Shown piece by piece: positions 11,804-59,262 of a stretch of 64,000 nt of DNA (its first letter is position 1; every line of letters starts with the position of its first letter). Source of the DNA: Micropruina sonneratiae (lineage in GTDB: Bacteria; Actinomycetota; Actinomycetes; Propionibacteriales; Propionibacteriaceae); the NCBI RefSeq assembly GCF_025972045.1, contig NZ_JAPDHX010000004.1, positions 124,001-188,000 of the forward strand, read 5' to 3'. The translations under genes and the position numbers were made by a program. The notes beneath the pieces were generated by a model, which worked only from the letters and a program-made list of their open reading frames with translations, was not told the DNA's origin and searched no databases.

Positions 11804-11810
11804 TCGTTAC

Positions 11811-40289: not shown

Positions 40290-41543
40290 CTACAGCGCCG
40301 GCTCGGCCTCGAGCAGGGGCCGGAGCTCGGCGTCCAACTCGCCGTCGGTGCAGTACCGCTGCAGGACGCCGTCGGCTAGCACGTTCGCCAGCGCCGCGAG
40401 CACCATCGACTGATCGAGGCTGAGGTAGCGCCGCGCCACCTTCCCCGACCGGACGCCGACCGCGTCGCAGAAGCCGCCCGGGCCGTAGCAGCCCAGATCA
40501 CGCTCGAGGCGGGCCAGGCAGTCGGTCGCCTCGACGGGTTCGACCATCAGCGCCATCGCCACGGCGTGCGGAGTGACCACACCGTCCCCCCAGCCGGTTT
40601 CGCGGCCGACCGCGTACGGCGTCCGCTCGACGTCGCTGGGATACTCCGTCGGTGACAGCCCGATCGGCGCCACACCCCATTCCGAGTAGCCACCGTCGGG
40701 GGTGCTGGCCGGCGAGAAACCCCAGTAGCCGAAGCGGGCATCATCGAGACCGAACGTCCGGTGCGCCGCCACCGTGTTGCGATGCGACGCGCCGAACGCC
40801 GCCGGCGACCAGTCGGCCTCGGGGATGAGCAACTGCGGCATCAGGGCCTCGAACATCGACCCGCCCCAGGTCGGGATCACCGCCAGGCCGCGGTACTCGC
40901 GGCGTTCACGGGGCAGGCCGCGGTAGTGACCGGCGGGGATCTGGCCGAGGCCGATGCCGAGGTAGCTGCAGATCCGCGGTTCGCTCATCAGGTGCCCGTA
41001 GTGGTGCCCGGTGGGTCGCAGCCCGTCGGCGTCGACGAAGAACCCGCCCCACAGCTCACCGACCTCCGGGTCGTGGAAGCGGCCGAAGTCCATCGACCCC
41101 AGCAGCGCCCCGGCCGGCCCGGCCACCTCGGGCACCGCGTTGCGCACCACCAACAGTCCGGCCCCCAGCCAGCCGTTGTCGACGCTGGACAGGAACTGCC
41201 TGATCACTCCCCCGTCGGGCATCACCTCCAGCCGGGCGCCGGTCGCCTCGTCGTACCAGTTGAAGAACATGCCGGAGGCAACGTCTCGCCGCATGGCCGC
41301 AAGCGTGTCGAGGGCCGCAGCACACCGCGCAGCGCAGTCGCGGGGCTCGATCAGGCCCAGTTCGCGGGCCGCGACCGCGCACCACAGCAGCCCGCCTATG
41401 TTGGTCGGCGAGGTGTAGCGGCTGCGGCTCGACGGGTCCAGGTCGGCGGCCAGATGGTCGGCGGGCAGGCCGGTGCGCGGGTCGGTGAGGGCGGCCAGGC
41501 TGCGCCAGGTGTCCGCCGCCCAGCGCCGCAGATCGTCAGTCAT
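40290..41543 (-). CDS. PF10091/GH144-like glycoside hydrolase, cytoplasmic
   Basis: 417 residues without a signal peptide, resembling the glycoamylase domain (PF10091) present in GH144 endo-beta-1,2-glucanases and in cyclic beta-1,2-glucan synthases. Typical segments: DPSSRSRYTSPTNIGGLLW, SSVDNGWLGAGLL, TWGGSMFEALMPQLLIPE, YWGFSPASTPDGGYSEWGV, VTPHAVAMALMV and YLSLDQSMVLAALANVL. The (alpha/alpha)6 barrel architecture fits. Last gene of the transport arm of the locus, 45 bases after the LacI gene. Likely acts inside the cell on imported oligosaccharides. The linkage specificity is inferred from the neighbours; catalytic residues cannot be assigned from sequence alone. Confidence 0.7.
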   Translation of the reverse strand: MTDDLRRWAADTWRSLAALTDPRTGLPADHLAADLDPSSRSRYTSPTNIGGLLWCAVAARELGLIEPRDCAARCAAALDTLAAMRRDVASGMFFNWYDEATGARLEVMPDGGVIRQFLSSVDNGWLGAGLLVVRNAVPEVAGPAGALLGSMDFGRFHDPEVGELWGGFFVDADGLRPTGHHYGHLMSEPRICSYLGIGLGQIPAGHYRGLPRERREYRGLAVIPTWGGSMFEALMPQLLIPEADWSPAAFGASHRNTVAAHRTFGLDDARFGYWGFSPASTPDGGYSEWGVAPIGLSPTEYPSDVERTPYAVGRETGWGDGVVTPHAVAMALMVEPVEATDCLARLERDLGCYGPGGFCDAVGVRSGKVARRYLSLDQSMVLAALANVLADGVLQRYCTDGELDAELRPLLEAEPAL

Positions 41544-41588
41544 CGGAGCCTTTCGTCGTCACGAAGAGGACCCGGCGTCCGCCGGAAC

Positions 41589-42599
41589 TCAGTTGTCACG
41601 CCGCTCGACGCAGCCGCAGCTTGAGCGCACGACCAGCTGCGAGGGCACCAGGATCTCGTCGCTGTCGGTCGAGGAGCGCACGATCAGGTCGTGCAGGCGC
41701 TGCGCCGCCATCCGGCCCACCTCCCGGGCCGGCTGCCGCACGGTGGTCAGCCCCGTGTACCGCGCGGCCATCACGTCGTCCCAGCCGGTCACCGCCAGAT
41801 CCTCCGGCACCCGGACGCCGCGCCGCCGCAGCTCGAGCACGACACCGAGGGCCAGCTCGTCGTTGGCGCAGACCAGGGCGTCCAGGTGGCCGTCGGCGAC
41901 GACCGCCTCGGCCACCTCCGCCGCCTGCGACTCCCCGAACAGCGCCCGCAGCGGCGGCCCGGCCTGGTCGAGCCCGGCAGCCTCCAGCGCGTCGAGGAAG
42001 CCTCGGTGGCGATGGGCGGCGTCCCGCGCCTGGTCGGGATCGCCGGCGAACAGCAACCGTCGGTGGCCGTGGTCGCGCAGCAGATGGATGACCAGTTCCT
42101 CGGTGGCGCGGCGATTCTCGACGTTCACCCCGGCGCAGCCTTCGACCGGGTCGCGGTTGAGCAACACGGTCGGCACCCGCCGGGCCACCTCACGGGCCAC
42201 CTCGTCGGAGGTGGTGCCGTGTGCCAGCACCATGCCGTCCATCTTCGCGGCCAGGTCGAAGACCCTGTCCTCGACCGCCTCGATGCCTTCGGTGGAGATC
42301 AGCGACACGCTCTGGCCGAACTCCGGCGCCCGCGATTCGTAGCCGACCAGCAGTTCGGAGTAGTACGGCCCGCCCAGCGAGTAGAGCACCAGGCCGTGCT
42401 GCTCCACGCGCAGGGCGGTCGCGCGTCCGGCCCGCAACGGCACGTAGCCGAGCTCACGGACGGCGTCCAGCACCTTCGCCTTGGTGGCCGGCGAGCTCGG
42501 GGTCGACCCCTGCAGCACGCGTGACACCGTCGCGATCGACACGCCCGCGCGTTCGGCCACGGTGTAGATGGTGACCGGCCGTTCCTCCTCGGCGCTCAC
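41589..42599 (-). CDS. LacI-family transcriptional regulator
   Basis: 336 residues. N-terminal helix-turn-helix VAERAGVSIATVSRVL and hinge ALRELGY-like AVRELGYVPLRAGRA, then a periplasmic-binding-protein-like effector domain with PTVLLNRDPVEG and DDVMAARYTGLTTVRQP. The GTG start follows TAGGGT by 7 bases, so it is likely leaderless and can be expressed apart from the transport genes upstream. It is the obvious candidate to bind the palindrome at 48331-48348 and to respond to an imported oligosaccharide or its breakdown product. Confidence 0.88.
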   Translation of the reverse strand: MSAEEERPVTIYTVAERAGVSIATVSRVLQGSTPSSPATKAKVLDAVRELGYVPLRAGRATALRVEQHGLVLYSLGGPYYSELLVGYESRAPEFGQSVSLISTEGIEAVEDRVFDLAAKMDGMVLAHGTTSDEVAREVARRVPTVLLNRDPVEGCAGVNVENRRATEELVIHLLRDHGHRRLLFAGDPDQARDAAHRHRGFLDALEAAGLDQAGPPLRALFGESQAAEVAEAVVADGHLDALVCANDELALGVVLELRRRGVRVPEDLAVTGWDDVMAARYTGLTTVRQPAREVGRMAAQRLHDLIVRSSTDSDEILVPSQLVVRSSCGCVERRDN

Positions 42600-42671
42600 G
42601 CTGCCCACCCTACTGAGCCGGGCCCACCCCACGACAGGAACCGGCACCCGCGCCAGGTGCATCACAGACCC

Positions 42672-44549
42672 TCAGGCCGGTCGGTCCAGCTTGTCGAACG
42701 GGTTGGGGATGGCGTCGAGGAGCTTGCGCGTGTAGTCGTCGCTCGGGTCCCGGATGACAGTGAGCGCCCGGCCCTGCTCGACCACCCTGCCCTGCGAGAG
42801 CACGATGATCTCGTCGGCCAGCATCCGGGCACTGAGCAAATCGTGGGTGATGTAGAGGATGCCGACGTCGGACTCCTGCACGAGGTCGTGCAGCAATTCC
42901 AGGATCTCGGCCCGGATCGACACGTCGAGCGACGAGATCGGCTCGTCGGCGACGATCAGCTCAGGGTTGCTGGCCAGCGCCCGGGCGATCACCACCCGTT
43001 GCCGCTGGCCACCGGACAGCTCATAGGCGTAGCGGTTGCGGTAGCGGGACGCCGGGGTGAGGGCCACCTTCTCGAGCAGTTCCTCGACCCGCTGCTTGAG
43101 CGCCTCCCCGGACAGGCCGAGGAAGTTCCTCAGCGGCCGGGACAGGATGTAGCCCAGCGTCTTGGTGGGGTTCAGCGAACTGTACGGGTCCTGGAACACC
43201 ATCTGCACCTTGCTGCGGTAGTCGCGCAGCTGACCCGGACGCAGCCCCACCACGTCGATCGCCCGTCCCTCCCGGGTGTGGAACATGATGGTTCCGGCCG
43301 TCGGCTTCTCGACACCGGTGATCAGCTTGGCCAGCGTCGACTTGCCCGATCCCGACTGCCCGACCAGCGCGGTCACCGCGCCCCGGCGCAGCTCGAAGGC
43401 GACGTCGTCGACGGCGGTGAAATCGCTGAACGTGAACCCGTTGCGGGTTCGGTAGGTCTTGCTCACGTCGCTCAGGGTGAGGAAGGCGTGCTGGGACAAC
43501 GCCTCCTTGCTCTCGTCGTCGCTCTTGACGAACTCCGGCCCGGCGAATTTGGCCGACCTGGCCGGCACCTCGACCCCGTCCTCGGGCTCGGCCTGCAACT
43601 GCGCGACGTGGCAGGCCACCCGGGCACCGTCCACCGCGAGCAACTCCGGTTCGACGCTCAGGCAGCGGTCGATCCGTTCCGGGCAGCGCGGCGCGAACAG
43701 GCAGCCCGCGTGCTCGCGGGTCAGGTCCGGCGGCCGTCCCGGCACGTAGGTGATGCGGACCGTCTGGGCGCGAGGGTCGCCGTAGGAGCCGAGCAGGCCC
43801 TTGGAGTAGGGGTGCAGCGGGTTGCGCATCAGATCGGCCGAGTCGTGCTCCTCGACGATCCTGCCCGCGTACATCACCAGGATCCGGTCGGACAGGTCGA
43901 GCACGGTGCCCATGTCGTGGCTGATGAACAGCACGGCGAACTTCTGCTCGGCCTGCAGCGTGCGGACCGCCTCGAGGATCGAGCGCTGGACCACGACGTC
44001 CAGGCCGGTGGTGGGCTCGTCGAGCAGGACGAAGCGCGGCTTGTTGACCAGGGCCAACGCCAGGTTGATCCGCTGCTTCATGCCGCCGGAGAGTTCGTGC
44101 GGGTAGGCGGTGAGGAACTTCTCCTCGATCATCACCATGCCGAACAGTTGCCGCACCCGGTCGACCACGGCGTCGCCGCGCAGGTCGGAATGCAGTTCGA
44201 TGGCGTCGCGGAACTGGTCGACCACACGGACGACGGGGTTGAGCGCGTTCATCGAGGACTGGAACACCGTGGAGATGTCCCGCCAGCGGTAGGGGCGCAG
44301 TTCGTCCTGCGTCATCGTCGCCAGGTCGTTGCCGTCGAAGACGATGGAGCCGCCGGAGATCCGACCCGGGCGTTCGACCAGTCGCAGCAGTGCGTTGGCC
44401 AGCGTCGACTTGCCCGAGCCGGACTCACCGATCAGGCCGACGAACTCGCCCTCGGCGATCTCGAACGACACGTCGTCGACGGCCTGGACGGGCTTGTGCA
44501 ACCGCGGTTCGTAGCGGACGCCGAGATTCTTCACTTCGAGCAGTGCCAT
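42672..44549 (-). CDS. Double ABC ATPase subunit, Opp/Dpp type
   Basis: One 625-residue chain with two ATPase domains, equivalent to DppD plus DppF. Domain 1: GESGSGKSTLANALLR, ELSGGMKQRINLALAL, VLLDEPTTGLDVV; after it the cysteine-bearing CLFAPRCPERIDRCL of the Opp/Dpp ATPase C-terminal region. Domain 2: GQSGSGKSTLAKLITG, ELSGGQRQRVVIARAL, ADEPISSLDVS. The two permeases and the binding protein precede it with overlaps or short gaps. Peptide-class importers carrying sugars are known, for example for cello-oligosaccharides in thermophiles. Confidence 0.9.
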   Translation of the reverse strand: MALLEVKNLGVRYEPRLHKPVQAVDDVSFEIAEGEFVGLIGESGSGKSTLANALLRLVERPGRISGGSIVFDGNDLATMTQDELRPYRWRDISTVFQSSMNALNPVVRVVDQFRDAIELHSDLRGDAVVDRVRQLFGMVMIEEKFLTAYPHELSGGMKQRINLALALVNKPRFVLLDEPTTGLDVVVQRSILEAVRTLQAEQKFAVLFISHDMGTVLDLSDRILVMYAGRIVEEHDSADLMRNPLHPYSKGLLGSYGDPRAQTVRITYVPGRPPDLTREHAGCLFAPRCPERIDRCLSVEPELLAVDGARVACHVAQLQAEPEDGVEVPARSAKFAGPEFVKSDDESKEALSQHAFLTLSDVSKTYRTRNGFTFSDFTAVDDVAFELRRGAVTALVGQSGSGKSTLAKLITGVEKPTAGTIMFHTREGRAIDVVGLRPGQLRDYRSKVQMVFQDPYSSLNPTKTLGYILSRPLRNFLGLSGEALKQRVEELLEKVALTPASRYRNRYAYELSGGQRQRVVIARALASNPELIVADEPISSLDVSIRAEILELLHDLVQESDVGILYITHDLLSARMLADEIIVLSQGRVVEQGRALTVIRDPSDDYTRKLLDAIPNPFDKLDRPA

Positions 44550-44552
44550 GGC

Positions 44553-45494
44553 TCAGCCGTCCTCTCGCAGGTGCGGGTTGCTCAACAGGTCGATGCCGAA
44601 GTTCACGAAGGTGAACGCGGTGATCAGGATCGCCAGGGCCAGGCCGGGCACGAACAGCCAGATCCACAGGCCCTGGGCCAGCGCGCCCTGCTGGTTGGCC
44701 TGGTAGAGCATGGTCCCCCACGACACCGAACTGGTGTCGCCGAGGCCGAGGAAGGACAGCCCCGCCTCGGCGCCGACCGCGCCGGTGGCCGCGCCGAAGA
44801 AGCCGGCCATGATCAGCGACGACATGCTGGGCATGATCTCCCGGAACACGATCGTCCACGACCGGTCGCCGGAGAACTTGGCGGCGGTGACGAAGTCGCG
44901 GTTGCGCAGCGTGATGATCTGGGATCTCTTCGCCCGGGCCGCCCCGGCCCACGAGGTGATTGCGATCACGAAGATCGTGAACCAGATCGACCGGTCCTCG
45001 GTGTAGGCCATCAGGGTGATGATCAGCGGCAGGATCGGCACTACCAGGGCGACGTTGGTGACGAACGACAACACCTCGTCGATCCAGGTGCCTTCGAAGT
45101 AGCCCGAGATCATGCCGACCACCAACGCGATGATCGTCGCGAACAGGCCGCCGAACAGTCCGACCAGCAGCGACACCCGGGTGCCCCAGATCAGCTGGGA
45201 GGCGATGTCGCCGCCGGAGGTGGTGGTGCCCAGCCAGTGTTCGGCGCTCGGTTCGAGCAGAGCCTCGAAATCGGTCCGGGTCCCCTCGTAGGGGGCGATC
45301 CAGGGCGCAAAGACGCCCAGCAGGATGTACAGGCCCAGGATCACGATGCCCACCCGCGCCTTGCGGTTGGCCCAGATGATCGACCACCACCGCGGACCGG
45401 CGGCCTCGACGGCCTCGGCCTCGGCGGCGGCGAGTTCTTCGCCGCCGACCGGCAGGTTGGAGGAGTCGGTGGGTTGGGTGACGCCGGTGCTCAT
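44553..45494 (-). CDS. ABC transporter permease, DppC type
   Basis: 313 residues with an N-terminal cytoplasmic tail, one helix (VGIVILGLYILLGVFAPWI) and then the binding-protein-dependent transport domain with about five helices. The EAA-type loop is near SQIITLRNRDFVTAAK. The start overlaps the stop of the partner permease by four bases (ATGA), and the ATPase gene follows after 3 bases. Confidence 0.88.
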   Translation of the reverse strand: MSTGVTQPTDSSNLPVGGEELAAAEAEAVEAAGPRWWSIIWANRKARVGIVILGLYILLGVFAPWIAPYEGTRTDFEALLEPSAEHWLGTTTSGGDIASQLIWGTRVSLLVGLFGGLFATIIALVVGMISGYFEGTWIDEVLSFVTNVALVVPILPLIITLMAYTEDRSIWFTIFVIAITSWAGAARAKRSQIITLRNRDFVTAAKFSGDRSWTIVFREIMPSMSSLIMAGFFGAATGAVGAEAGLSFLGLGDTSSVSWGTMLYQANQQGALAQGLWIWLFVPGLALAILITAFTFVNFGIDLLSNPHLREDG

Positions 45495-46483
45495 GACTGT
45501 GCCTTCCGGGCGCGGGGATCGAGAATGCCGTACAACATGTCGGCGATCAGGTTGGCCAGCAGGACGCCGACGATGGTGAACAGCAGCAGGGCCTGCAGCA
45601 GCGGGTAGTCCTTGTTGTCGATCGCCTGGGCGGTGAGCCGGCCCAGGCCCGGATAGTCGAAGACCTGCTCGATCAGGATCTGCCCGCCCAGCATCGAGCC
45701 CAGCGCCAGGGCCAGGCCGGTGATCGAGGGCAGCAGGGCATTGCGCGCGGCGTAGCGCAGCGCGATCTGGGTGTCGGGGACGCCCTTGGCCCGGGCCAGT
45801 CGCACGTAGTCCTCACCCAGGTTCATGATCATCGTGTTGCGCATGCCGAGGATCCAGCCGATCGGACCGGTGATCAGCAGCACCGAGGCGGGCAGGATCG
45901 AGTGGTAGATGGCGTCCCCGATGAACTCGGCGTTCCAGCCGGGGGTGCTGGCGTCGTAGCCGCCGGCGGTCGGGAACCAGCCGAGCACGTAGCCGAACGC
46001 GAACAGGATGAGCAGCGCCAGCCAGAAGGCGGGCAGGGTGCCGATGAAGGTCGAGCCGAGGGTGACGATCGAGTCGAAGCGGGTGTTGCGCCGCCAGGCC
46101 GCGAAGGCGCCCAGCAGGGTGCCGACCACGAACGAGATGAGCAGCGTGGTGCCGACCAGCACCAGCGTCCACGGCAGCGCCACCCCGATCACCGTCGCGA
46201 CGTCATAGGGGAAGTAGGTGTAGGACAGGCCCAGCTCACCGCGGCTCAGCGAGCCGAGATAGTTCCAGTACTGCTCCCACAGGTTCTTGCCGGCCGGGTC
46301 GCCCAGCATCGCCCGCAATGCCTCGATCTTCGCCGGGTCGAGCTCGGCGTCCCTGCCCTGCAGCTTCTTGAACATGATCTCGGCCGGATCGCCGGGCTGC
46401 AGCCTGGGAATGATGAAGTTCAGGGTCACCGCCGCCCACAACGTGGCGAGGAAGAACCCGATCCGCCTCAGGAAATAGCGCAT
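45491..46483 (-). CDS. ABC transporter permease, DppB type
   Basis: 330 residues with six hydrophobic segments. The start MRYFLRRIGFFLATLWAAVT is the typical DppB/OppB N-terminus; the region around LGMRNTMIMNLGEDYVRLA is the cytoplasmic ATPase-contact loop. Pairs with the DppC-type permease through an ATGA overlap. An 88-base gap with a large hairpin separates it from the binding-protein gene. Confidence 0.9.
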   Translation of the reverse strand: MRYFLRRIGFFLATLWAAVTLNFIIPRLQPGDPAEIMFKKLQGRDAELDPAKIEALRAMLGDPAGKNLWEQYWNYLGSLSRGELGLSYTYFPYDVATVIGVALPWTLVLVGTTLLISFVVGTLLGAFAAWRRNTRFDSIVTLGSTFIGTLPAFWLALLILFAFGYVLGWFPTAGGYDASTPGWNAEFIGDAIYHSILPASVLLITGPIGWILGMRNTMIMNLGEDYVRLARAKGVPDTQIALRYAARNALLPSITGLALALGSMLGGQILIEQVFDYPGLGRLTAQAIDNKDYPLLQALLLFTIVGVLLANLIADMLYGILDPRARKAQS

Positions 46484-46517
46484 CGTCGCGCTCCTTTCGG
46501 GCTAGCTGGACGCCGGG

Positions 46518-46553
46518 GCGGGGCATGGCGGTGAGGAGTGCGCCATGCCCCGC
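46518..46553 (-). promoter_or_regulatory. Intergenic hairpin between binding-protein and permease genes
   Basis: A perfect 13-bp stem (GCGGGGCATGGCG with its complement) and ten-base loop. Such hairpins after binding-protein genes typically reduce read-through and protect the upstream mRNA, so that more binding protein than permease is made. Function inferred from position. Confidence 0.6.
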
Positions 46554-46571
46554 TGGCCGGGGTCGCGGTGG

Positions 46572-48260: not shown

Positions 48261-48427
48261 CGGATCTCCTCACGTGGTCGATTCTTGTCAGCATGATCCG
48301 CACATACCCGGGGCGTCAACGGATTGTGCGCATGAAAGTACTTTCATGGCCCAGTGCGCCTACTTTCAGTTATTTACACGCCCGCAACGGGTGTTCAAGG
48401 CCACATTTTCGGTGGTAGACAAAACGA
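48261..48427. promoter_or_regulatory. Divergent control region of the sugar locus
   Basis: This 167-base, relatively A+T-rich gap separates the leftward transport arm from the rightward enzyme arm. For the leftward side, TTGACG (complement of 48314-48319) is a -35 candidate with CATGCT (complement of 48290-48295) 18 bases on. For the rightward side, TAGACA (48416-48421) lies 6 bases before the ATG, with TTCAAG about 16 bases upstream. The palindrome at 48331-48348 lies 11 bases beyond the leftward -35, and a half-site ACTTTCA occurs again at 48362-48368. Confidence 0.65.
48331..48348. promoter_or_regulatory. 18-bp palindromic operator, probable LacI-family site
   Basis: CATGAAAGTACTTTCATG is a perfect palindrome located between the divergent promoters. 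It resembles LacI-family operators of the TGAAAGCGCTTTCA type, but with TA rather than CG at the centre. It is the natural target of the LacI protein encoded at 41589-42599. Confidence 0.7.
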
Positions 48428-51400
48428 ATGACCATGAGCACAGTGCGTCATGACGGATGCCTGGCCACCCCCACCGGCTGGGGTGGCCTGGCCCGCCTGG
48501 ACCTGGCGGGCCTGTCCATGCTGCAGTACCCGGCGAGTAGCTGTGAGGCCGGTGCAGGTGGAGTGTGGCTACGGGTCCTGCACGGTGAACGAGCACACCC
48601 GGTGCGGCTGGCGGACCCCTCCGCTCCCGTGCCGGTCTCGCGCTACCCCGACGGGTTCGCGGTGTCGTCGCACACCGATTCGCTGCAGTATTCGCTGCGC
48701 TTTTCGCTGCACGAACCCGAATTAATGTGGCAATGGTCGGTGAGCGTGACCAATAACGGCACGTCGGCAATCGAATTCGACACGGTGATGGCCGCCGATA
48801 TCGCATTGGCGCCTTTCGATGTGGTACGTATCAACGAGTTCTACGTCAGCCAGTACCTCGATGTGACGCCGTTGTGGCACCAGCGCTGGGGCCGGTGTCT
48901 GGCGGTGCGCCAGAACATGCCCGGACCGAGGGCGCCCTGGGTGCTGTTGGGCTGCTACGGCGGCGGAGCGGGGTGGGCGAGTGACGCCAGGCAACTCGGC
49001 CCGGTGGTCGACGCCGAACTGGCCGGGCTGCGCCGGCGGGCCCTTCCGAACCGGCGGCTGCAGCACGAGCACACCCTGGCGGTGCTGTCCTCGAAACCGG
49101 AGGTGCTGCAGCCCGGCGAGACCCAACGCGGCGGCTTCTTCGGCCTGCTCGTCGAGGACCACCCCGCCGCGACCGGGCCGGGCGACGTCGATGCGGCCCC
49201 GGCGGCCCCGCTGCCGGTGGTGGAACGGGGGACGGAGCCCGGACTGCCCGCCGAGTCCGCCTCACTGGTGGTCCGGGCCGCGCAGCTCGACGGCGCGCCA
49301 CTCGACCCCGGCGAGCTGGCCGCGCTGGTCGGCGATGACGTGCGGGTGGTGGAACGGCAGGCCGACGCCTGGTGGGAGGCCGTGGGGCCCCCCGGAGAAG
49401 TGCTGGTGAGCGCCGCGAAGCAGGCAGCCGTGCTGCGCCCGCATGGGCAGCTGCTGCGGACCTCCGCGGCGACGACCCCCACCCGGACCTGCCTCACGGC
49501 GACGGTCTGGATGGACGGCGTGTTCGCCGCGCAACTCACCCGCGGTCACGTCGGGCGGCGGCCGATGCTGACCACCACCCGCACCCACCTGGGCCTGCAA
49601 CGCAGCCAGGGCCTACGGCTCTACCTCCGCCGGGGTGGCACGTGGTGGCGGCTCGGGCGGCCCAGCACCTGGGGGTTGCGACCCGACCGCGCCCGCTGGC
49701 TCTACGCCTTCGACGACGTGGTGCTGCAGGTCACCACCACGGCGGCGCAGGCCACCGACGAGTTCGCCGTCGAGGTGCAGACGCTCCGGGGCGCGGTCGA
49801 CGAGCTGCTGTGGGTGGGCCAGTTGGCCGGCGGCGACGACCCGGAACCGACGCTGGAGCTGACCGAATCCGGGGCGATCGCCCGCTGGACCGACCGGACC
49901 CTGCGCGTCCGGTCTGAGGTCGATCCACATCGGGCACCGACTTCGGTGCCCGATGTGGACCAACCCCGACACCGGTTCGCCGCCGACGCCCCCCTGTACG
50001 CCGACGGACGGCAGCGCGGCACCGGCTGGCTCACGCTGCGCAGCGGCGGCGACGTGCGGCTCGTGGTCGACGCTCCCGCCGAGGGCGAACAGCAACCGGC
50101 CGCGACCCCCGGCGGCACCCACCCGGTCCGGCTCGGGTTGAGCCTGACAGGTGGGCCGGCGGCGTCCGAGGTGGCGGAACTGGACCGCATAGTGCCCTGG
50201 TTCGGCCACGACGCCCTGGTGCACTACCTGTCGCCACGCGGCCTGGAGCAGTTCACCGGTGGCGGGTGGGGAACCCGTGACGTGTGCCAGGGCCCGGTCG
50301 GGCTGCTCACCGCGCACGCCGACGACCGGGCCCAGCGCGACCTGCTGGTGCGGGTCTTCTCCGCCCAGCATGAGCGCGGCGACTGGCCACAGGCGTTCGA
50401 GTTCCTCCCCCCGGCCGGGGCCGGGCAGCCCGACGCGCACGGCGACGTGCTGTTCTGGCCGCTGCTCGCCCTGGGCGACTTCCTGCTGCGCAGCCACGAC
50501 GCCGGGCTGCTGGCGGTGCCTGCCGGTTTCGTCGACGACGACGGCCCCACCGCGAAGGCCCCGATCTCGGAGCACCTGACCAGGGCGCTGGCGGTGATCG
50601 AGAACCGGACCGTACCGAACAGCCCGCTGCCCGCCTACGGGCACGGTGACTGGAACGACTCGCTGCAGCCGGCCGACCCGCGGCTGGCGGCGCAGATGGC
50701 GTCGGCGTGGACGGCCACCCTGCAGGTGCAGGCGCTGCGGGCACTCAGTGCCGGGCTGGCGGCGACCGGCGCGGAACCGGCGCTGGCCCGGCGGGCCTCC
50801 GAGCTGGCCGACGCGACCGAGGCGGCGTTGCGGAAGGAGCTGCTGGTCGACGGCGTGCTCGCCGGCTATGGGGTGTTCGACACCGACGGCGTCCGCGACG
50901 AGGTGCTGGTGCATCCGCGCGACGACCGCACCGGATTGACCTACGGGGTGCTGCCCTGGATCCACGCGATCAGTGCCGAGCTGCTCGAACCGGACGCCGC
51001 GGCGCATCATCTGCGGCTGATCGAGGAGCACCTGCTCGGGCCGGACGGCACCCGGCTGTTCGACGCCCCGGTGCCCTACCGCGGCGGCCCGGTGGAGGTC
51101 TTCCAGCGGGCGGAGGCGGCCACCTTCTGGGGACGTGAGATCGGGCTGATGTACACCCACGCACACCTGCGCTACGCCGAGGCGTTGGCGCGGTTCGGCG
51201 ACGCCGGGGGGCTTTTCCGGGCGCTGTGCCTGGTCAACCCGGTCGGCGTCACGGCGCGGGTCGCCGGCGCCCGCCCCCGGCAGAGCACCTGCTACTACTC
51301 CTCGTCGGACGCCGCCTTCGCCGATCGCTATGACGCCGCCGCCCGCTACCCGGCCTCGCTGACCGGCCAGGTGCCGCTGGAGGGCGGCTGGCGGGTGTAC

Positions 51401-51733
51401 TCCTCGGGGCCGGGGCTGTTCCTGCGCCTGCTGGTGGAATGCCTGCTCGGGGTTAACCGGCGCGGTGCCGAACTGCTGCTCGACCCGGTCCTCGACCCGG
51501 CGCTCGACGGCCTCGTCGCCGAGGTGCCTCTCGACGACCGGACGTTGCGGCTGACCTACCGGGTGCGCGGGCCGGGCCACGGAGTCTGCGCGGTGCGGGC
51601 CGGCGGGCGTGAACTGTCGCTGCGGCCGCACCCCAACCGCTACCGGCGCGGCGGCGTCCTGATCGATCGGGGCGACCTCGGCGAACCCGTCGGCGGCGTC
51701 ACCGAGGTGCTGGTGCTGGTGGGCGATGAGTGA
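48428..51733 (+). CDS. GH94 phosphorylase, 1,2-beta-oligoglucan phosphorylase-like
   Basis: 1101-residue cytoplasmic protein of family GH94, which cleaves beta-glucosides with phosphate to give alpha-glucose 1-phosphate. The N-terminal half is beta-sandwich-like with RINEFYVSQYLDVTPL and AVRQNMPGPRAPWVLLG, characteristic of 1,2-beta-oligoglucan (sophoro-oligosaccharide) phosphorylases. The (alpha/alpha)6 barrel has YGHGDWNDSLQP, with the general-acid Asp near 741, and RQSTCYYSSSDAAF. Length fits this subgroup; cellodextrin phosphorylases are shorter and differ at the N-terminus. It overlaps the GH3 gene by eight bases. A perfect 36-bp palindrome (49924-49959) lies within the frame around residue 500. 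Specificity is inferred. Confidence 0.8.
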   Translation: MTMSTVRHDGCLATPTGWGGLARLDLAGLSMLQYPASSCEAGAGGVWLRVLHGERAHPVRLADPSAPVPVSRYPDGFAVSSHTDSLQYSLRFSLHEPELMWQWSVSVTNNGTSAIEFDTVMAADIALAPFDVVRINEFYVSQYLDVTPLWHQRWGRCLAVRQNMPGPRAPWVLLGCYGGGAGWASDARQLGPVVDAELAGLRRRALPNRRLQHEHTLAVLSSKPEVLQPGETQRGGFFGLLVEDHPAATGPGDVDAAPAAPLPVVERGTEPGLPAESASLVVRAAQLDGAPLDPGELAALVGDDVRVVERQADAWWEAVGPPGEVLVSAAKQAAVLRPHGQLLRTSAATTPTRTCLTATVWMDGVFAAQLTRGHVGRRPMLTTTRTHLGLQRSQGLRLYLRRGGTWWRLGRPSTWGLRPDRARWLYAFDDVVLQVTTTAAQATDEFAVEVQTLRGAVDELLWVGQLAGGDDPEPTLELTESGAIARWTDRTLRVRSEVDPHRAPTSVPDVDQPRHRFAADAPLYADGRQRGTGWLTLRSGGDVRLVVDAPAEGEQQPAATPGGTHPVRLGLSLTGGPAASEVAELDRIVPWFGHDALVHYLSPRGLEQFTGGGWGTRDVCQGPVGLLTAHADDRAQRDLLVRVFSAQHERGDWPQAFEFLPPAGAGQPDAHGDVLFWPLLALGDFLLRSHDAGLLAVPAGFVDDDGPTAKAPISEHLTRALAVIENRTVPNSPLPAYGHGDWNDSLQPADPRLAAQMASAWTATLQVQALRALSAGLAATGAEPALARRASELADATEAALRKELLVDGVLAGYGVFDTDGVRDEVLVHPRDDRTGLTYGVLPWIHAISAELLEPDAAAHHLRLIEEHLLGPDGTRLFDAPVPYRGGPVEVFQRAEAATFWGREIGLMYTHAHLRYAEALARFGDAGGLFRALCLVNPVGVTARVAGARPRQSTCYYSSSDAAFADRYDAAARYPASLTGQVPLEGGWRVYSSGPGLFLRLLVECLLGVNRRGAELLLDPVLDPALDGLVAEVPLDDRTLRLTYRVRGPGHGVCAVRAGGRELSLRPHPNRYRRGGVLIDRGDLGEPVGGVTEVLVLVGDE
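49924..49959. repeat. Perfect 36-bp palindrome inside the GH94 gene
   Basis: TCCACATCGGGCACCGA (49924-49940), a two-base centre CT and the exact complement (49943-49959). In frame it encodes a loop-like DPHRAPTSVPDVD segment. Such a long perfect palindrome is not expected from codon constraints and looks like a REP-type unit inserted in frame. Confidence 0.85.
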
Positions 51734-53882
51734 GCGGCCGTGGTTGCGCGAGGGCCCGCTGGAGCACCGGGTCGAGTCGTTGCTGGCCGAGCTGACCCTT
51801 GCCGAGAAGGCGGGCCAGCTCAATCAGCCGGCCAACGTGTCACCGGGTGACGACCACGACGCGCTCGCGGCGGGCCGGATCGGCTCGTCGCTGTACGCCA
51901 GTGGCGCATTGGGCGGCAACGAACGCGACGAGGGCCTGTCGATCGCCGCGATCGAGCAGTGCCAGCGGATCGCCGTCGAGGAATCCCGGCTGGGTATTCC
52001 CGTGCTGTTCGGCCGCGACGTCATCCACGGCCACCGCACTGTCTTCCCCATCCCGCTCGGACTCGCCGCCGGCTGGGACCCCGACCTGGTCGAACGCCTG
52101 GCCGCCGTCGCCGGCGAGGAGGCGGCCCGCGAAGGGGTCGCCTGGACCTTCGCCCCGATGGTCGACATCTCCGAGGAGCCGCGCTGGGGCCGGGTCGCCG
52201 AGGGATTCGGCGAGGCGCCGGTGCTGTCCGGGCGGCTCGCAGCGGCGTCCGTGCGTGGCTTCCAGCGCTCGATCGGTGCGACGGCCAAGCATTTCGTCGG
52301 CTACGGCCTGGCAGCCGGTGGACGCGACTACGACACCGTTCAGGTCGGCGAGAACACGCTGCGGAACCTGCACCTGCGCACCTTCCGCGACGCGGTGGAC
52401 GCCGGGGTGCTGGCCGTGATGGCGTCCTTCAACGACGTCGACGGCACACCCATGCACGCAAACCGGCGGCTGGTCCGCGAGGTGCTGAAGGACGAGTGGG
52501 GTTTCGACGGCGTGGTGGTCGCCGACTGGTCGGGGGTGGGCCAGCTGGTCGACCACGGGGTCGCCGCGGACGCCCGGGACGCCGCCCGGCAGGCGCTGCT
52601 GGCCGGCGTCGACCTCGACATGGCATCGGGCTGCTATCTGGCGCACGCCGAAGAGCTGGTCGTCTCGGGCGCGGTGCCGGCCGAGATCGTCGACGACGCG
52701 GTCCGCCGGGTGTTGCGGATGAAGTTCCGGCTCGGCCTGTTCGACGACCCGTACCCGCGCACCACCGACGAGCCGATCGGGCCCACCGCGTCCACCCGTG
52801 CGCTGGCCCGCGAGGCGGCGGCGTCCTCACTGGTGCTCGTCGGCAACGACGGTGTACTGCCGCTGCGCGAGGACGTTGCGTCGCTGCACCTGACCGGACC
52901 GTTCGTCGACGACGGCGAGGCCCTGCTCGGCACCTGGGTGCTCGACGGGCGGGGCGAGGACGTGGCCACCCCGCTGGCCGCGTTCACCGAACTGCTCGGT
53001 GAGCGAGTGAGCCACACCGACGGCCGGTTCAGCGACCTGGCCTGCCACCGCACCCGTGAGGCGGCAGTCACGGTCGCGCTGCTGGGTGAGCATCCGAGCC
53101 GCTCCGGTGAGGCCAACTCGGTGGCCGACCTGGGCCTGCCGGCAGGCCAACTCGAGGCGCTGCGGCAACTGTGCGACCTGGGCAAGCCGGTGGTCGCGGT
53201 GGTGTTCGCCGGGCGTCCGCTCGACCTGACCGAGGTGCTGCGAGCGGCGTCCGCCGTGCTGGTTGCCTGGCATCCGGGCACCGAGACCGGCCCGGCTCTC
53301 GCCGATGTGCTGTTCGGACGCCGGGAGCCCCGCGGCCGGCTGCCCATGACCTTCCCGCGCAGCACCGGGCACGTGCCGTCGTCGATCCACGCCCGCGGCA
53401 CCTCCCGGGTGATCGATTTCAGCCGCGACGTGTGGGGCGGCCGCTACCTCGACGCTCTCACCCAGCCGCAACTGCCGTTCGGCTTCGGCCTGGCGTACAC
53501 CACCTTCGAGATCGGCCCGCCCGCCCTCGACAGGTCGCAGGTGCCGCTGGGCGGAGAGGTCGGCGTCCAGGTGCCGGTCGCCAACACCGGCGGCCGGCCC
53601 GGGCGTGCGGTGGTGCAGCTCTACCTGCACGATCCGGTGGCCGACGTCACCCGGCCCAAGGTGGAGTTGCTCGACTGGCAGGCCATCGACGTCGACGCGG
53701 GGGCGACCGGGTCGGCACGGTTCACCGTCTCCACCGACGCCTTCGGCTACTACGGGCGCGACCTGAGCCGGAGGGTCGACACCGGCCTGATCCGGCTGAT
53801 CGCCGGTCCGGACGCCGCGCACGGCCAGGCAGTCGAACTCACCGTGACCGAACCCACGGCGACAAGGGAGGACGACGCATGA
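51726..53882 (+). CDS. GH3 beta-glucosidase
   Basis: 718 residues, cytoplasmic. Three parts: the (beta/alpha)8 domain with AKHFVGYGLAAGGRDYD and the nucleophile Asp267 in VVVADWSGV, the second alpha/beta domain with LLGEHPSRSGEANSV carrying the probable acid/base Glu462, and a C-terminal fibronectin-III-like domain (VNTG-like VANTGGRPGRAVVQLYLHD). The family removes terminal glucose from beta-glucosides; close relatives next to 1,2-beta-oligoglucan phosphorylase in Listeria act on sophorose. It overlaps both neighbours, by eight bases upstream and four downstream, showing translational coupling. Confidence 0.9.
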   Translation: MSERPWLREGPLEHRVESLLAELTLAEKAGQLNQPANVSPGDDHDALAAGRIGSSLYASGALGGNERDEGLSIAAIEQCQRIAVEESRLGIPVLFGRDVIHGHRTVFPIPLGLAAGWDPDLVERLAAVAGEEAAREGVAWTFAPMVDISEEPRWGRVAEGFGEAPVLSGRLAAASVRGFQRSIGATAKHFVGYGLAAGGRDYDTVQVGENTLRNLHLRTFRDAVDAGVLAVMASFNDVDGTPMHANRRLVREVLKDEWGFDGVVVADWSGVGQLVDHGVAADARDAARQALLAGVDLDMASGCYLAHAEELVVSGAVPAEIVDDAVRRVLRMKFRLGLFDDPYPRTTDEPIGPTASTRALAREAAASSLVLVGNDGVLPLREDVASLHLTGPFVDDGEALLGTWVLDGRGEDVATPLAAFTELLGERVSHTDGRFSDLACHRTREAAVTVALLGEHPSRSGEANSVADLGLPAGQLEALRQLCDLGKPVVAVVFAGRPLDLTEVLRAASAVLVAWHPGTETGPALADVLFGRREPRGRLPMTFPRSTGHVPSSIHARGTSRVIDFSRDVWGGRYLDALTQPQLPFGFGLAYTTFEIGPPALDRSQVPLGGEVGVQVPVANTGGRPGRAVVQLYLHDPVADVTRPKVELLDWQAIDVDAGATGSARFTVSTDAFGYYGRDLSRRVDTGLIRLIAGPDAAHGQAVELTVTEPTATREDDA

Positions 53883-56353
53883 CCTCGGTCGAGACCAGGG
53901 CCGGTCAGCTGCTCATCGACGGCGAGCCCAGGCTGGTGATCGCGGGCGAGATCCACTACTTCCGGGTGCCCCGCGACGAGTGGGCCGACCGGCTCGACCT
54001 GGCCGTCGAGGCCGGCTGCAACGCGGTCGCCTCGTACATCCCGTGGCTGCTGCACGAGTTGCCCGACGGCACGCTGGACGTCACCGGCGACACCCGCGAC
54101 GACCGCGACGTGGGCGCGTTCATCGACCTGTGCGCCGCCAAGGGCCTGTGGTTCATCGCCCGGCCGGGGCCGTTCGTGATGGCCGAGCTGATGAACGAGG
54201 GGCTGCCGTTCCGGCTGTACCGGGAACATCCGGAGCTGGTCCCGGTCGGTTGGGACGGCGTCCCGACCGGCAGCAGGACGCTCGACTATCTGCATCCCGC
54301 CTTCCTGGCCGAGGTGCGCCGCTGGTACGCGACCGTGCTGCCGCGGATCTACCAGCGGCTGGCGCCCCGCGGCGGCAACGTGATCGCCGTCCAGCTCGAC
54401 AACGAGGTGGGCATGCTGGCCTGGGTCACCAACTCCCCCGACCTGACCGGTCACCTGCTGGCCGACTTCCGCGACTGGTTGGACGCGCCGGCACGCCGAG
54501 CCTCGACCGGGCACACCGGCGGCACCCCCTGGCCGGACGAGCCGGAGGGGCCGGACGGGACCTCGCACGGCGCCACACCCTGGCCCGCGCTCGCCGCCCT
54601 GTCCCCCGAGCCGGACGCCTTCGCGCGCGCCGTCCGCTCGCCCGAGGAATCCTGGGCGGGTGAACTGCGGGCCGCGCTGCCACTGTTCATGCGCGACCGG
54701 TTCGCCCGCTACCTCGGCGCCCTGCGCGACCTGGCGCACGAGTTCGGGGTTCACGACGTGCCGCTATTGGTGAACCTGCACGGCACCGCGGCCGGGAGCG
54801 CCGAGCCGTTCCCGATCGGCATCAGCCAACTGGTGGAGACCTACTCCGGGCTACCGGGGATGGTGGCCGGCTCGGACCACTACGTCGGCGAGATGACGCT
54901 GAACGCCACCACCGACCTGTACGTGATCAACGCCTTCCAGGCGGCGGTCAACGGCCCCGACCAGCCGCTCACCTCGGTCGAGTTCGAGGCCGGCAGCGGC
55001 GACTACGGAAACGGCATGGACGTCGCTTACGACCCTTCGACGGTCGAGTTGAAGACCCGGCTGTTCCTCGCACAGGGCAACCGGCTGATCAACTACTACC
55101 TGTTCGCGGGCGGCCACAACCGCCCCCTGGAGGTGCCGATCGGCGACGGGATCGACCGGATCGCCTTCACCGGTGAGCGGCACGGGTTCGCCGCCCCGGT
55201 GGGGCCGGAGGGGCAACGCGGGCTGACCTTCGAGCCGACGTCGCGAGCGGGCCGGACGGCCCGCACCCTGGCGCCCTGGCTGTCCCGGATGCGGCCCGAG
55301 CCGGACTCGCTGCAGCTCGGCCTGGTGCTGGACGCCTACGCCAGCGAGTACCACCACCCGGGCTCTGCTCTGATGACCGAGATCACCGAGGACCTGACCC
55401 GGCACCGCGGTGCCGGCCCGCGGCGAGCCCTGGCCCGTTCGACCCTGCTGCTCGGCTACCAGTTCGACGCCGTCTGGCTGGAACGTTCGGCGCCACGCGA
55501 CGACGCCGTGCTGATGCTGTCGACCGGGCGCTTCATGGACGCCGCCCTGCAGCGCCGGCTGGCGGCCTGGGTGCGCGGCGGTGGCCGGCTGCTGCTACTC
55601 GGACGCCTGCCCGAGGCGGATCTGGCCGGGCGTGGCTGCACGGTGCTGGCCGACGCACTGGGCCTGCGCGGCATTGGCATGGTCTGGGACGCCGCCCACT
55701 ACTTCCCCACCGCCCGGGCCGCCGGCTGGACGAAGCCGTGGCCGGACACCCGGGTCGGATGGTTGCAGCGGCTCGCGGTCGACGACTCCCCGGGCGCGCC
55801 GGCGTCCGAGGTGGTGCTCACCGACTGCGACGACATCCCGTGCGGCGTCGAGGTCGAACTCGGGCGGGGCCGGGTGGTGTTCCTGGCCGCCGAGCTGCCC
55901 AGCAACCTGGCCCTGTTCGGGCGGGTGCTGGACCGGTTCGGCGTCCGGCCCCGGCTGCGCCTGGAGACTGAGGTGCCCGGCGTCTTCGGGCTCAGCACGG
56001 TCACCGACAACGGTCAGCGGCTGCTGCATCTGCTCAACGTCACCGGGTACGAGCCGGAAGTGGTGGTGTCCTTCGACGGCCTCCCCGCGCGGCGGCTGCG
56101 GCTGCCCGTCCGCGCCGGGGTGGCACTGCCGGTGAACCTGGCCACCCCGGTGGGGGTGATCGAGTGGGCAGACGCCGAACTGGTCGACGTCGCAGCCGAT
56201 CGGTTGGCGTTCGGGCCGGGGCTGGCCGGTGACGCGTCGAGCGTGCGGTTGCGCGGGCCGGTGACGGCGGTCGAGGGTGGCACGCTCAGCGTCGACGGCG
56301 AGGTCAGTGTGGTGACCGGCCAGGGGCCGTTCGTGCTGCACCTGCCGACCTGA
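53879..56353 (+). CDS. GH35 family protein, probably not a beta-galactosidase
   Basis: 824 residues, no signal peptide. The GH35 barrel reads AGEIHYFRVPRDEWADRL, CNAVASYIPWLLHELPDG, FIARPGPFVMAELMNEGLP, IAVQLDNEVGML with the acid/base Glu176, and TSVEFEAGSGDYGNGM with the nucleophile Glu368. A long C-terminal half with a glutamine-amidotransferase-like segment (RLLLLGRLPEADL) and beta domains follows. A GH35 enzyme encoded beside beta-1,2-glucanase genes in Ignavibacterium acts on beta-1,2-glucosidic linkages as a glucosyltransferase; the location next to a GH94 and a GH3 gene suggests the same here. The ATG overlaps the GH3 stop (ATGA). Confidence 0.8.
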   Translation: MTSVETRAGQLLIDGEPRLVIAGEIHYFRVPRDEWADRLDLAVEAGCNAVASYIPWLLHELPDGTLDVTGDTRDDRDVGAFIDLCAAKGLWFIARPGPFVMAELMNEGLPFRLYREHPELVPVGWDGVPTGSRTLDYLHPAFLAEVRRWYATVLPRIYQRLAPRGGNVIAVQLDNEVGMLAWVTNSPDLTGHLLADFRDWLDAPARRASTGHTGGTPWPDEPEGPDGTSHGATPWPALAALSPEPDAFARAVRSPEESWAGELRAALPLFMRDRFARYLGALRDLAHEFGVHDVPLLVNLHGTAAGSAEPFPIGISQLVETYSGLPGMVAGSDHYVGEMTLNATTDLYVINAFQAAVNGPDQPLTSVEFEAGSGDYGNGMDVAYDPSTVELKTRLFLAQGNRLINYYLFAGGHNRPLEVPIGDGIDRIAFTGERHGFAAPVGPEGQRGLTFEPTSRAGRTARTLAPWLSRMRPEPDSLQLGLVLDAYASEYHHPGSALMTEITEDLTRHRGAGPRRALARSTLLLGYQFDAVWLERSAPRDDAVLMLSTGRFMDAALQRRLAAWVRGGGRLLLLGRLPEADLAGRGCTVLADALGLRGIGMVWDAAHYFPTARAAGWTKPWPDTRVGWLQRLAVDDSPGAPASEVVLTDCDDIPCGVEVELGRGRVVFLAAELPSNLALFGRVLDRFGVRPRLRLETEVPGVFGLSTVTDNGQRLLHLLNVTGYEPEVVVSFDGLPARRLRLPVRAGVALPVNLATPVGVIEWADAELVDVAADRLAFGPGLAGDASSVRLRGPVTAVEGGTLSVDGEVSVVTGQGPFVLHLPT

Positions 56354-58332: not shown

Positions 58333-59253
58333 TCAGAGCTCAGCGCGGGTCGGGGCGTAGGCGCCGGCCCGGCTGACGGTGTTCGATGAGGTGATGATCG
58401 CCCGGTCGACGGCGGGCATGATGTCCTCCAGCCGGGCGCCGCGCAGCGCGGCCGCGGGTCCGGGACCGCCCAGATAGTCGGCGTCGAGCAGGCCGGACAG
58501 CAGGCCGGCCATGAACGAGTCCCCGGCACCAACCGTGTCGCCCACCTCGACCACCCGAGGGGCGACCTCGATGATCGCGTCGTCGGAGGCGATGGCGACG
58601 AACGCGCCCTCGCCGCCCCGGGTCACGACCACCAGCGCCGGACCGAGCTGCAACCAGTACCTCATCACCTCGGCCACGGAACGGCCCGGGTAGAGCCAGT
58701 GGATGTCCTCATCGCTCGACTTCACCACGTCGGACAGGCCGACGATCTCCTCGACCCGACCGATCACGGCGTCCGGGCTGCCCATCAGGGTGGGCCGGGC
58801 GTTCGGGTCGTACGACACCGTCACCCGCTCACCGGCGGCACGGATGGCCGCCACCACCTGCGAACCGCCGGGCTCGAGGGTGGCCCCGATGCTGCCGGTG
58901 TGCAGATGGCCCACACCGTCGGCCGGCGGCAACTCGGGCAGCAGCCAGGACAGGTCGAACTGGTACGTGGCCTGGCCGGCGGCGTCGATCAGGGCGTTGG
59001 CCACCGAGGTGCGCGGCGCCCGGTCCGAGCCGGACGCGACCCGCACGTGGGCGTCCCGACAGGCCTGGGCGATGCGCTCGCCGCGTTCGTCCCTGGCGAA
59101 CCAGGCCGCCAGTGTCACGTCATGGTCGAGCCGACCGAGACCGAACGCCACGTTGGCGGGGCTGCCGCCGACGTGCTCGGAGACCTGTCCAGCCTTGTGG
59201 ACGACGTCGACCAGAGCCTCGCCCAACACCAGAACCGGGCTGTCCTTCGCCAT
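58333..59253 (-). CDS. PfkB-family sugar kinase, likely fructokinase
   Basis: Ribokinase-fold kinase of 306 residues. Substrate-side motif EHVGGSPANVAFGLGRL near residue 25 and the ATP/anion-hole signature VEVGDTVGAGDSFMAGLLSG near residue 235 with the catalytic Asp. The pattern most resembles bacterial fructokinases, and the gene directly follows a sugar porter gene by 9 bases. Fructose is the best guess: it could arise from imported sucrose or fructose. Ribose or other ketoses remain possible. Confidence 0.8.
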   Translation of the reverse strand: MAKDSPVLVLGEALVDVVHKAGQVSEHVGGSPANVAFGLGRLDHDVTLAAWFARDERGERIAQACRDAHVRVASGSDRAPRTSVANALIDAAGQATYQFDLSWLLPELPPADGVGHLHTGSIGATLEPGGSQVVAAIRAAGERVTVSYDPNARPTLMGSPDAVIGRVEEIVGLSDVVKSSDEDIHWLYPGRSVAEVMRYWLQLGPALVVVTRGGEGAFVAIASDDAIIEVAPRVVEVGDTVGAGDSFMAGLLSGLLDADYLGGPGPAAALRGARLEDIMPAVDRAIITSSNTVSRAGAYAPTRAEL

Positions 59254-59262
59254 GAACGCTCC

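What the first reader, a model, noticed from the sequence alone, without database searches (positions are those of the whole stretch)
40290..56353. Complete beta-linked gluco-oligosaccharide locus, best guess beta-1,2-glucan
Eight co-oriented or coupled genes on both sides of one divergent promoter encode an Opp-type importer, a LacI regulator, a PF10091/GH144-like protein, a GH94 enzyme of the 1,2-beta-oligoglucan phosphorylase type, a GH3 beta-glucosidase and a GH35 protein. Phosphorylase plus GH3 occur together in Listeria innocua, and GH144-like plus GH35 in Ignavibacterium. I know no locus combining all four enzyme families with a peptide-type transporter. All enzymes lack signal peptides, so degradation would be wholly intracellular, with energy saved as glucose 1-phosphate.
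Basis: partly seen in the sequence, partly recalled or inferred. Interest (0 to 1): 0.8.

Follow-up and report, generated by a model that had tools for sequence, protein, structure and literature searches.

The report
Cytoplasmic beta-1,2-glucan uptake locus
An actinobacterium carries a switchable set of nine genes that most likely imports chains of beta-1,2-linked glucose and breaks them down inside the cell, including a chain-cutting enzyme of a usually secreted family that here has no export signal.

Summary
The genes are real and the coordinates exact; there are nine, not eight. [quoted passage not shown] The GH35 protein's best solved relative is the Ignavibacterium beta-1,2-glucosyltransferase: catalytic and subsite -1 residues match, two subsite +1 residues do not. 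The PF10091 protein is not GH144: it falls with the recently founded family GH193 (45.5% identity to its founder SkSGL), in a well-supported clade of four whose members all sit in loci of this gene order and lack both an export signal and 27-30 residues that secreted relatives have. The locus is not unique: the same nine-gene order occurs in Intrasporangium, Phycicoccus and Terracoccus, and without GH193 in seven more loci. A LacI-type palindrome in the divergent promoter recurs in 10 of 12 comparable loci. Best reading: LacI-controlled import of beta-1,2-gluco-oligosaccharides and cytoplasmic degradation to glucose and glucose 1-phosphate; no activity has been shown. New variant of a known kind. 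Open: why an endo-type enzyme is kept inside the cell (long or cyclic glucans?), and what GH35 transfers to.

The parts
40290..41543 (-). SGL-clan protein of the GH193 group, 417 aa, no recognisable signal peptide; general acid E188 and candidate base D122 present; lacks 27-30 residues after position 213 that secreted relatives have
41589..42665 (-). LacI-family regulator; true start probably near 42575 (VTIYTVAERAG)
   Evidence: the start is inferred from the position of the HTH
42672..44549 (-). fused double ATPase (OppD-OppF type), 625 aa
44553..45494 (-). OppC-type permease
45491..46483 (-). OppB-type permease
46572..48260 (-). family-5 binding lipoprotein; solved relatives named chitin-oligosaccharide and mannoside binders (E about 1e-39) rank above dipeptide binders (E about 1e-10)
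48331..48348 (.). 18-bp perfect palindrome CATGAAAGTACTTTCATG in the divergent promoter, candidate LacI operator
48428..51733 (+). [quoted passage not shown]
51726..53882 (+). GH3 beta-glucosidase, 718 aa; Lin1840 is among its solved relatives
53879..56353 (+). GH35 protein nearest to IaSGT, 824 aa, changed acceptor (+1) residues

Best explanation
The locus is a LacI-controlled system for taking up beta-1,2-gluco-oligosaccharides (sophoro-oligosaccharides, possibly longer or cyclic beta-1,2-glucan) through an Opp-type ABC importer and degrading them in the cytoplasm. Proposed steps: (1) the family-5 lipoprotein binds the glucan and OppBC/DF imports it (inferred); (2) the signal-less GH193 enzyme cuts longer or ring-shaped chains internally (family placement shown, activity inferred); (3) SOGP phosphorolyses chains of DP 3 or more to glucose 1-phosphate, ending at sophorose (family and residues shown, activity inferred from LiSOGP and LpSOGP); (4) GH3 hydrolyses sophorose to glucose (inferred); (5) GH35 transfers a glucosyl unit from sophorose or short chains to an acceptor that differs from that of IaSGT (donor-site residues conserved, acceptor inferred); (6) LacI represses both transcripts from one palindromic operator (site conservation shown, binding inferred).
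For: GH94: Pfam SOGP_N and SOGP_2nd; LpSOGP 5h3z E 1.2e-125; 15 of 15 LpSOGP ligand or catalytic residues identical in P0007 and nearly invariant in 94 other loci. GH35: IaSGT is the best solved relative by single sequence (158 vs 133 bits for the next kind, a glucosaminidase) and by profile (245 vs 219 bits); Y52, E102, N175, E176, N275, E343, Y378 conserved in 14 of 14. GH193: in one group with SkSGL and apart from three GH189 domains; fold Z 45 to TiCGSTg, 38.5 to CpSGL, 36.6 to XcSGL, 35.5 to EeSGL1, at most 23.3 to folds outside the clan. GH3: Lin1840 among the solved relatives. Identical order in L108, L109, L111. Palindrome in 10 of 12 comparable loci.
Against: No activity, binding or expression data. 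The GH3 type does not fix the linkage: many general beta-glucosidases rank above Lin1840. The GH35 subgroup lacks IaSGT's Arg349 and Trp279 and lies beside the same importer type without SOGP in 13 of 14 further loci, three of them with a related GH3, so GH35, GH3 and importer may serve a broader substrate. I recall the Sopn binder of Listeria (Lin1841) as another type of binding protein; it was not compared. L061 and L180 have the divergent arrangement but no match to the palindrome.
Confidence: 0.75

Rival explanations
1. The natural substrate is a sophoroside or another beta-glucoside (a plant or microbial glycoside with a beta-1,2-linked glucose pair), not a glucan; GH35 trims or transfers the terminal glucose and the other enzymes act on the released pieces.
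For: GH35 with the Opp-type importer exists without SOGP and GH193 in 13 of 14 further loci examined, 10 of them with a related LacI and three with a related GH3, one beside a GH1 by Pfam (L252; nine neighbouring frames scanned). IaSGT has wide aglycone tolerance (PMC8861115, abstract and Discussion read).
Against: SOGP needs chains of DP 3 or more, and the characterised GH193 enzyme is specific for beta-1,2-glucan (PMC12102758, abstract and sections read); both lie in this locus.
Confidence: 0.15
2. The locus is for other beta-glucans (cello- or laminari-oligosaccharides).
For: Lin1840 also hydrolyses laminaribiose (PMC4757417, passages read). Family-5 proteins that bind cello-oligosaccharides are known (recalled).
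Against: GH94 is of the SOGP type with the SOGP N-terminal domain; cellobiose phosphorylase scores only 30 bits; the nearest characterised relatives of the PF10091 and GH35 proteins act on beta-1,2 linkages (papers above).
Confidence: 0.04
3. Sub-hypothesis on GH35, compatible with the best explanation: it is a MalQ-like disproportionating enzyme; two sophorose give sophorotriose plus glucose, so that SOGP can recover the sophorose step as glucose 1-phosphate, and GH3 is a parallel route.
For: Sophorose is the preferred IaSGT donor (PMC8861115). Three SOGP loci have GH35 but no GH3 beside them (L064, L106, L172), and the genome of L106 (Pedococcus) has one GH3 match only at E up to 1e-30, 35% identity, E 5.5e-32. 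The subsite +1 residues differ from IaSGT.
Against: The genomes of L064 and L172 do have other GH3 proteins elsewhere (46% and 38% identity). IaSGT uses sophoro-oligosaccharides poorly as acceptors, partly because of Glu102, which is kept here as E103. A GH1 enzyme could replace GH3. GH35 also occurs without SOGP.
Confidence: 0.3
4. GH35 is an exo-beta-D-glucosaminidase and the importer carries chitosan oligosaccharides.
For: NCBIfam's only match for it is exo_beta_glucsam (E 1e-42, 146 bits against a cut-off of 1500).
Against: Asn175 of IaSGT, replaced by Asp178 in the glucosaminidase and proposed to help separate Glc from GlcN, is Asn here in 14 of 14 (PMC8861115). IaSGT scores higher.
Confidence: 0.04

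Closest known systems
Listeria innocua lin1839-lin1841 locus (SOGP, GH3, Sopn-binding protein)
   Same: cytoplasmic SOGP plus GH3 beside an ABC importer
   Different: no GH35 or GH193 is mentioned for it in the passages read (PMC4757417, PMC12369401); the window has an Opp-type importer, and the type of the Listeria binder was not compared
Ignavibacterium album IALB_1177-1187 cluster (GH144, GH35 IaSGT, ABC transporter)
   Same: SGL-clan enzymes, GH35 of the IaSGT kind and an importer
   Different: its SGL enzymes are GH144 homologues placed outside the cytoplasm in the authors' model, it has no beta-glucosidase, and its GH35 has Arg349 (PMC8861115, Discussion read)
Streptomyces griseus SGR_2422-2427 (GH1, GH193, ABC transporter)
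   Same: actinobacterial GH193 beside a sugar importer and a beta-glucosidase
   Different: binding protein is a Lin1841 homologue, GH1 instead of GH3, no SOGP or GH35 mentioned (PMC12369401, passages read)
SkSGL of Sanguibacter keddieii (GH193)
   Same: 45.5% identity over 468 columns, acid and candidate base at matching places
   Different: SkSGL has a signal peptide and a C-terminal Ig-like domain (PMC12102758); the window protein has neither and is shorter between the acid and F231
LpSOGP of Lachnoclostridium phytofermentans (GH94)
   Same: domain make-up and all 15 checked residues
   Different: from a distant host; no difference bearing on function was found, and full-length identity was not computed

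Membership tests
GH94 SOGP | SOGP-specific N-terminal and second domains | tested here: met
   PF21958 E 1.4e-41, PF21250 E 9.1e-20; PF21270 only below its cut-off
GH94 SOGP | donor, phosphate and Sop2 acceptor residues of LpSOGP | tested here: met
   15 of 15 identical in P0007 (residues from PMC5309861)
GH94 SOGP | phosphorolysis of Sopn with DP 3 or more, not of sophorose | not testable with these tools
   needs an enzyme assay
GH193 | groups with SkSGL, apart from GH189 | tested here: met
   40 rows including SkSGL and P0001 split from 3 CGS rows at 100/100; P0001-SkSGL 45.5% over 468 columns. The program warned of long branches (L113, one CGS row), relations inside the 40 are partly unresolved, and rows of GH144, GH162, GH192 and GH194 were not in the tree
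GH193 | general acid, candidate base and clan residues (E, D, F, Y) | tested here: met
   E188, D122, F231, Y286; the D-E pair corresponds to SkSGL D160/E246. F and Y were matched by sequence alignment, not by superposition
GH193 | anomer-inverting endo-beta-1,2-glucanase activity | not testable with these tools
   needs an enzyme assay
GH189 | nucleophile equivalent to TiCGS E1442 | tested here: not met
   the place holds S277-P278 in the alignment with Cgs; S277 and P278 are invariant in A1
GH144 | closest sequence relatives are GH144 enzymes | tested here: not met
   at E up to 1 one search lists no entry of CpSGL; two 'putative glucoamylases' (GH144 as I recall) come at E 0.06 and 0.09, against 45.5% identity to SkSGL
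IaSGT (GH35 beta-1,2-glucosyltransferase) | catalytic and subsite -1 residues | tested here: met
   7 of 7 conserved
IaSGT (GH35 beta-1,2-glucosyltransferase) | subsite +1 residues Arg349 and Trp279 | tested here: not met
   Gly374 and Thr303 in the window and 13 SOGP-linked rows and in 14 other rows. [quoted passage not shown]
Lin1840-type GH3 | sophorose preference (Arg572 equivalent) | not tested
   the alignment with Lin1840 was not printed
Opp-type ABC importer | family-5 binding protein, two permeases, OppD/F-type ATPases | tested here: met

The most novel reading that the evidence does not exclude
The system imports intact long beta-1,2-glucans, including the cyclic glucans made by rhizobia and agrobacteria, and opens them in the cytoplasm with a dedicated GH193 clade that lost its export signal and 27-30 residues between the general acid and F231; this would be a bacterial route for eating ring-shaped symbiosis and virulence glucans from the inside. 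SOGP and GH3 work from chain ends and could not start on a ring, which would explain why an endo-type enzyme is kept in the cytoplasm.
Probability: 0.2. Interest if true: 0.75.

Novelty: new variant of a known kind. Interest (0 to 1): 0.5.

Why it matters
Beta-1,2-glucan enzymes are still being discovered, and how actinobacteria use these glucans is little described in the papers I saw. This locus supplies a recurrent genetic unit with a conserved candidate operator, a signal-less branch of GH193, a GH35 branch with a changed acceptor site, and an Opp-type importer as a candidate beta-1,2-glucan transporter. Each can be tested directly, and together they would show whether bacteria import long or cyclic beta-1,2-glucans whole.

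Tried and rejected
Considered and dropped: GH144 membership; GH189 cyclisation (nucleophile absent); cello- or laminari-phosphorolysis; a glucosaminidase role for GH35 (N175). I first thought this GH35 kind was tied to SOGP; one search showed it in 35 of 293 genomes of the order (one match a fragment, G262), of which 7 are among the 20 with SOGP. I looked at 14 of the other 28: 13 have the Opp-type importer beside GH35, so I lowered the weight of GH35 as evidence for the linkage. A tblastn recheck corrected my frame-based maps: L071 does have a LacI, and L242, L247 and L248 have a related GH3 (46-53%) that the frame maps had hidden. I took large genomes for Streptomyces at first; the records show that the order holds Nocardioides and Tessaracoccus, so I name no genus for them. 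The SOGP tree (FastTree, midpoint root, L180 dropped as too short) gave support of only 0.108 for one clade of the core Opp/GH35 loci, so I claim no single origin; SOGP of the window is nearest to L061 (0.999), which has no GH193 in the locus. The cytoplasmic GH193 clade has support 100/99, but inheritance with loss, or transfer, is open. L097 was left out of that tree because my motif filter did not find it. The palindrome pattern was written from several of the loci it was then tested on, so its 10 of 12 is partly fitted; the 66 other SOGP loci are the outside control. Literature: listings of searches (open-licence papers, top 10-30 shown) contain no title or abstract on SOGP with an Opp-type importer or a cytoplasmic GH193; most subscription papers are not held, so this is weak evidence of novelty. 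One search (cyclic glucan uptake) listed nothing relevant.
Full report
Observation. The nine genes lie exactly within 40290-56353, on both sides of the intergenic stretch 48261-48427. On the minus strand come the binding lipoprotein, OppB, OppC, a fused OppD/F ATPase, LacI and a PF10091 protein; on the plus strand GH94, GH3 and GH35 with overlapping ends. Pfam gives each family above its curated cut-off, except the C-terminal SOGP domain, which is below it.

GH94. The best solved relative is LpSOGP (5h3z, E 1.2e-125, 424 bits); the only other hit at E up to 0.001 is a cellobiose phosphorylase at 30 bits. Fifteen residues that the LpSOGP paper names for donor, phosphate and acceptor binding or catalysis (PMC5309861, abstract and section on complexes read) are identical in the window protein. 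In 95 rows (the window and 94 other loci) the rest are gaps and a few changes at N138, Y141 and E917. I built no tree with cellodextrin or laminaribiose phosphorylases.

The PF10091 protein. Solved relatives rank cyclic glucan synthases (GH189) first (E 1.7e-22), then TiCGSTg (8.6e-17), then EeSGL1 of GH192 (4.6e-7); two putative glucoamylases follow at E 0.06 and 0.09. PMC12102758 (abstract, sections 2.1, 2.4, 4.2, first part of the Discussion, passages) founds GH193 on SkSGL of Sanguibacter keddieii and places it next to GH189. I take L219 for SkSGL: in its open frame of 789 residues the base and acid are 86 residues apart; one offset, 65, chosen to give D160, also gives E246 and leaves 724 residues, as printed in the paper. 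The contig length, 4253413, is that of the S. keddieii chromosome as I recall it. A tree of 43 rows puts P0001 with SkSGL and 38 others, split from three GH189 rows at 100/100; the program warned that long branches meet there and that L113 is very long. P0001 and SkSGL share 45.5% over 468 columns. P0001 has the acid E188, the candidate base D122 and the clan residues F231 and Y286, while the place of the GH189 nucleophile holds S277-P278. A predicted structure (mean pLDDT 86, two stretches under 50 at 286-295 and 306-316) matches TiCGSTg at Z 45.4 (rmsd 2.3, 375 aligned), CpSGL at 38.5, XcSGL at 36.6, EeSGL1 at 35.5, PgSGL3 at 32.7, TfSGL at 30.1, and folds outside the clan at 23.3 or less.

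A signal-less clade. All 14 relatives aligned with P0001 in A1 have an N-terminal extension with a hydrophobic stretch (1.3-2.9); 10 of 14 show a twin arginine. P0001 has no such extension and lacks 27-30 residues after position 213 that 13 of the 14 have (the fourteenth, L097, has more). The proteins at the same place in L108, L109 and L111 lack the same parts; the frame of L109 begins earlier, but its extension is not hydrophobic. The four form a clade at 100/99. The genomes of L108, L109 and L111 each hold a second homologue elsewhere (G357, G358, G359) that begins with a twin-arginine hydrophobic stretch (L226, L228; L227), whereas the window's genome has only P0001 at E up to 1e-10 with P0001 itself and at E up to 1 with PF10091. 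Clan families that these searches cannot reach remain possible.

GH35. IaSGT is the best solved relative by sequence (158 bits against 133 for a glucosaminidase) and by a profile of seven proteins (245 against 219). Its seven catalytic and subsite -1 residues are conserved in 14 of 14 rows (window plus 13 loci), but Arg349 is Gly and Trp279 is Thr; the aglycone-site residues are changed but still hydrophobic. In 14 further proteins from loci without SOGP, Gly and Thr hold in 14 of 14; the catalytic residues hold in 13, one being a fragment, and Y378 in 12. These 14 are half of the 28 genomes with this GH35 and without SOGP. In 13 of the 14 the Opp-type importer lies beside the gene, in 10 a related LacI and in three a GH3 of 46-53% identity to P0008; nine neighbouring frames were scanned with Pfam and one, in L252, is GH1. 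So GH35 with the importer is a wider actinobacterial unit, joined by SOGP and GH193 in only part of its range.

Recurrence. SOGP is in 20 of 293 genomes of the order, the window's included. The named collection returned its best 80 of more, so proportions are not those of nature. Of the 94 distinct SOGP loci, 15 have the Opp-type binding protein and permease in the stretch held, 13 have the GH35 (12 of them with the importer), and 19 have a GH193-like gene. The complete nine-gene order is in L108 (Intrasporangium flavum), L109 (Phycicoccus sonneratiae) and L111 (Terracoccus sp.). Seven loci have it without GH193: L061, L071, L105 (GH3 only a short piece), L110, L118, L143, L153. L064, L106 and L172 have GH35 and SOGP without a neighbouring GH3; L106 shows no importer. 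L113 and L128 have importer and SOGP without GH35 or GH3; L180 has importer, SOGP and GH3. Other actinobacterial SOGP loci have a longer GH193-like gene and a distant GH3 (28-33% identity to P0008), for example L069, L075, L076, L079.

Regulation. The divergent promoter holds CATGAAAGTACTTTCATG; its 14-base core has no second match in the window with up to three mismatches (17 of 100 shuffles had a match). With TGWAAGTACTTWCA and up to two mismatches, 10 of the 12 other loci with divergent SBP5 and SOGP have one site in between (L061 and L180 do not); L128 has one before its lacI. Sixty-six other SOGP loci, 1.29 million bases, have four; 20 single-base shuffles of the first set gave 0.2 on average against 11 seen. 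The pattern was written after seeing some of these loci.

How it probably works, and how sure. Import, endo-cleavage, phosphorolysis, hydrolysis of sophorose and glucosyl transfer follow from family knowledge; none is shown here. That the linkage is beta-1,2 rests on SOGP and GH193 above all; GH3 and GH35 agree but do not decide. The role of an endo-type enzyme in the cytoplasm is the real puzzle: SOGP and GH3 work from ends, so it would be needed only for long or ring-shaped substrates, or as a speed aid.

Novelty. All enzyme families are known, and neighbouring combinations are described for Listeria, Ignavibacterium and Streptomyces griseus (papers above, parts read). An Opp-type importer with SOGP, a signal-less GH193 clade and the GH35 branch with another acceptor site did not appear in the titles and abstracts listed by searches, which cover open-licence papers only. 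I rate it a new variant of a known kind, interest 0.5.

Noticed in passing
L097 9506-11173 and L113 13522-20688: A distant GH193-like protein (29-33% identity to P0001, Asp in place of the general acid Glu in the alignments) lies beside an Opp-type importer; the L097 stretch shows no SOGP, L113 does.
   Followed up: partly
L243 9004-9984 (G262, same genus as the window's genome): A short GH35 match (327 residues, 57% identity, matching only the C-terminal part of P0009) without importer, SOGP or GH3 nearby; possibly a remnant.
   Followed up: no
L112 8781, L167 3935, L178 3917: A related palindrome TGTAAGCGCTTWCA occurs in SOGP loci without the Opp importer, in L167 and L178 just before lacI, hinting at a shared operator type.
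   Followed up: no
L242, L247, L248 about 9300-14000: GH3 and GH35 overlap in one long frame on opposite sides of an Opp importer without SOGP or GH193: a simpler form of the locus.
   Followed up: partly
window 58333-60657: A PfkB-type sugar kinase next to a sugar-porter MFS protein close to the locus, by eye from the translations; not tested.
   Followed up: no
L180 3041-6317: SOGP in two consecutive frames beside an Opp importer and a GH3 of 61-62% identity in a Chloroflexi draft genome; broken or badly assembled.
   Followed up: no
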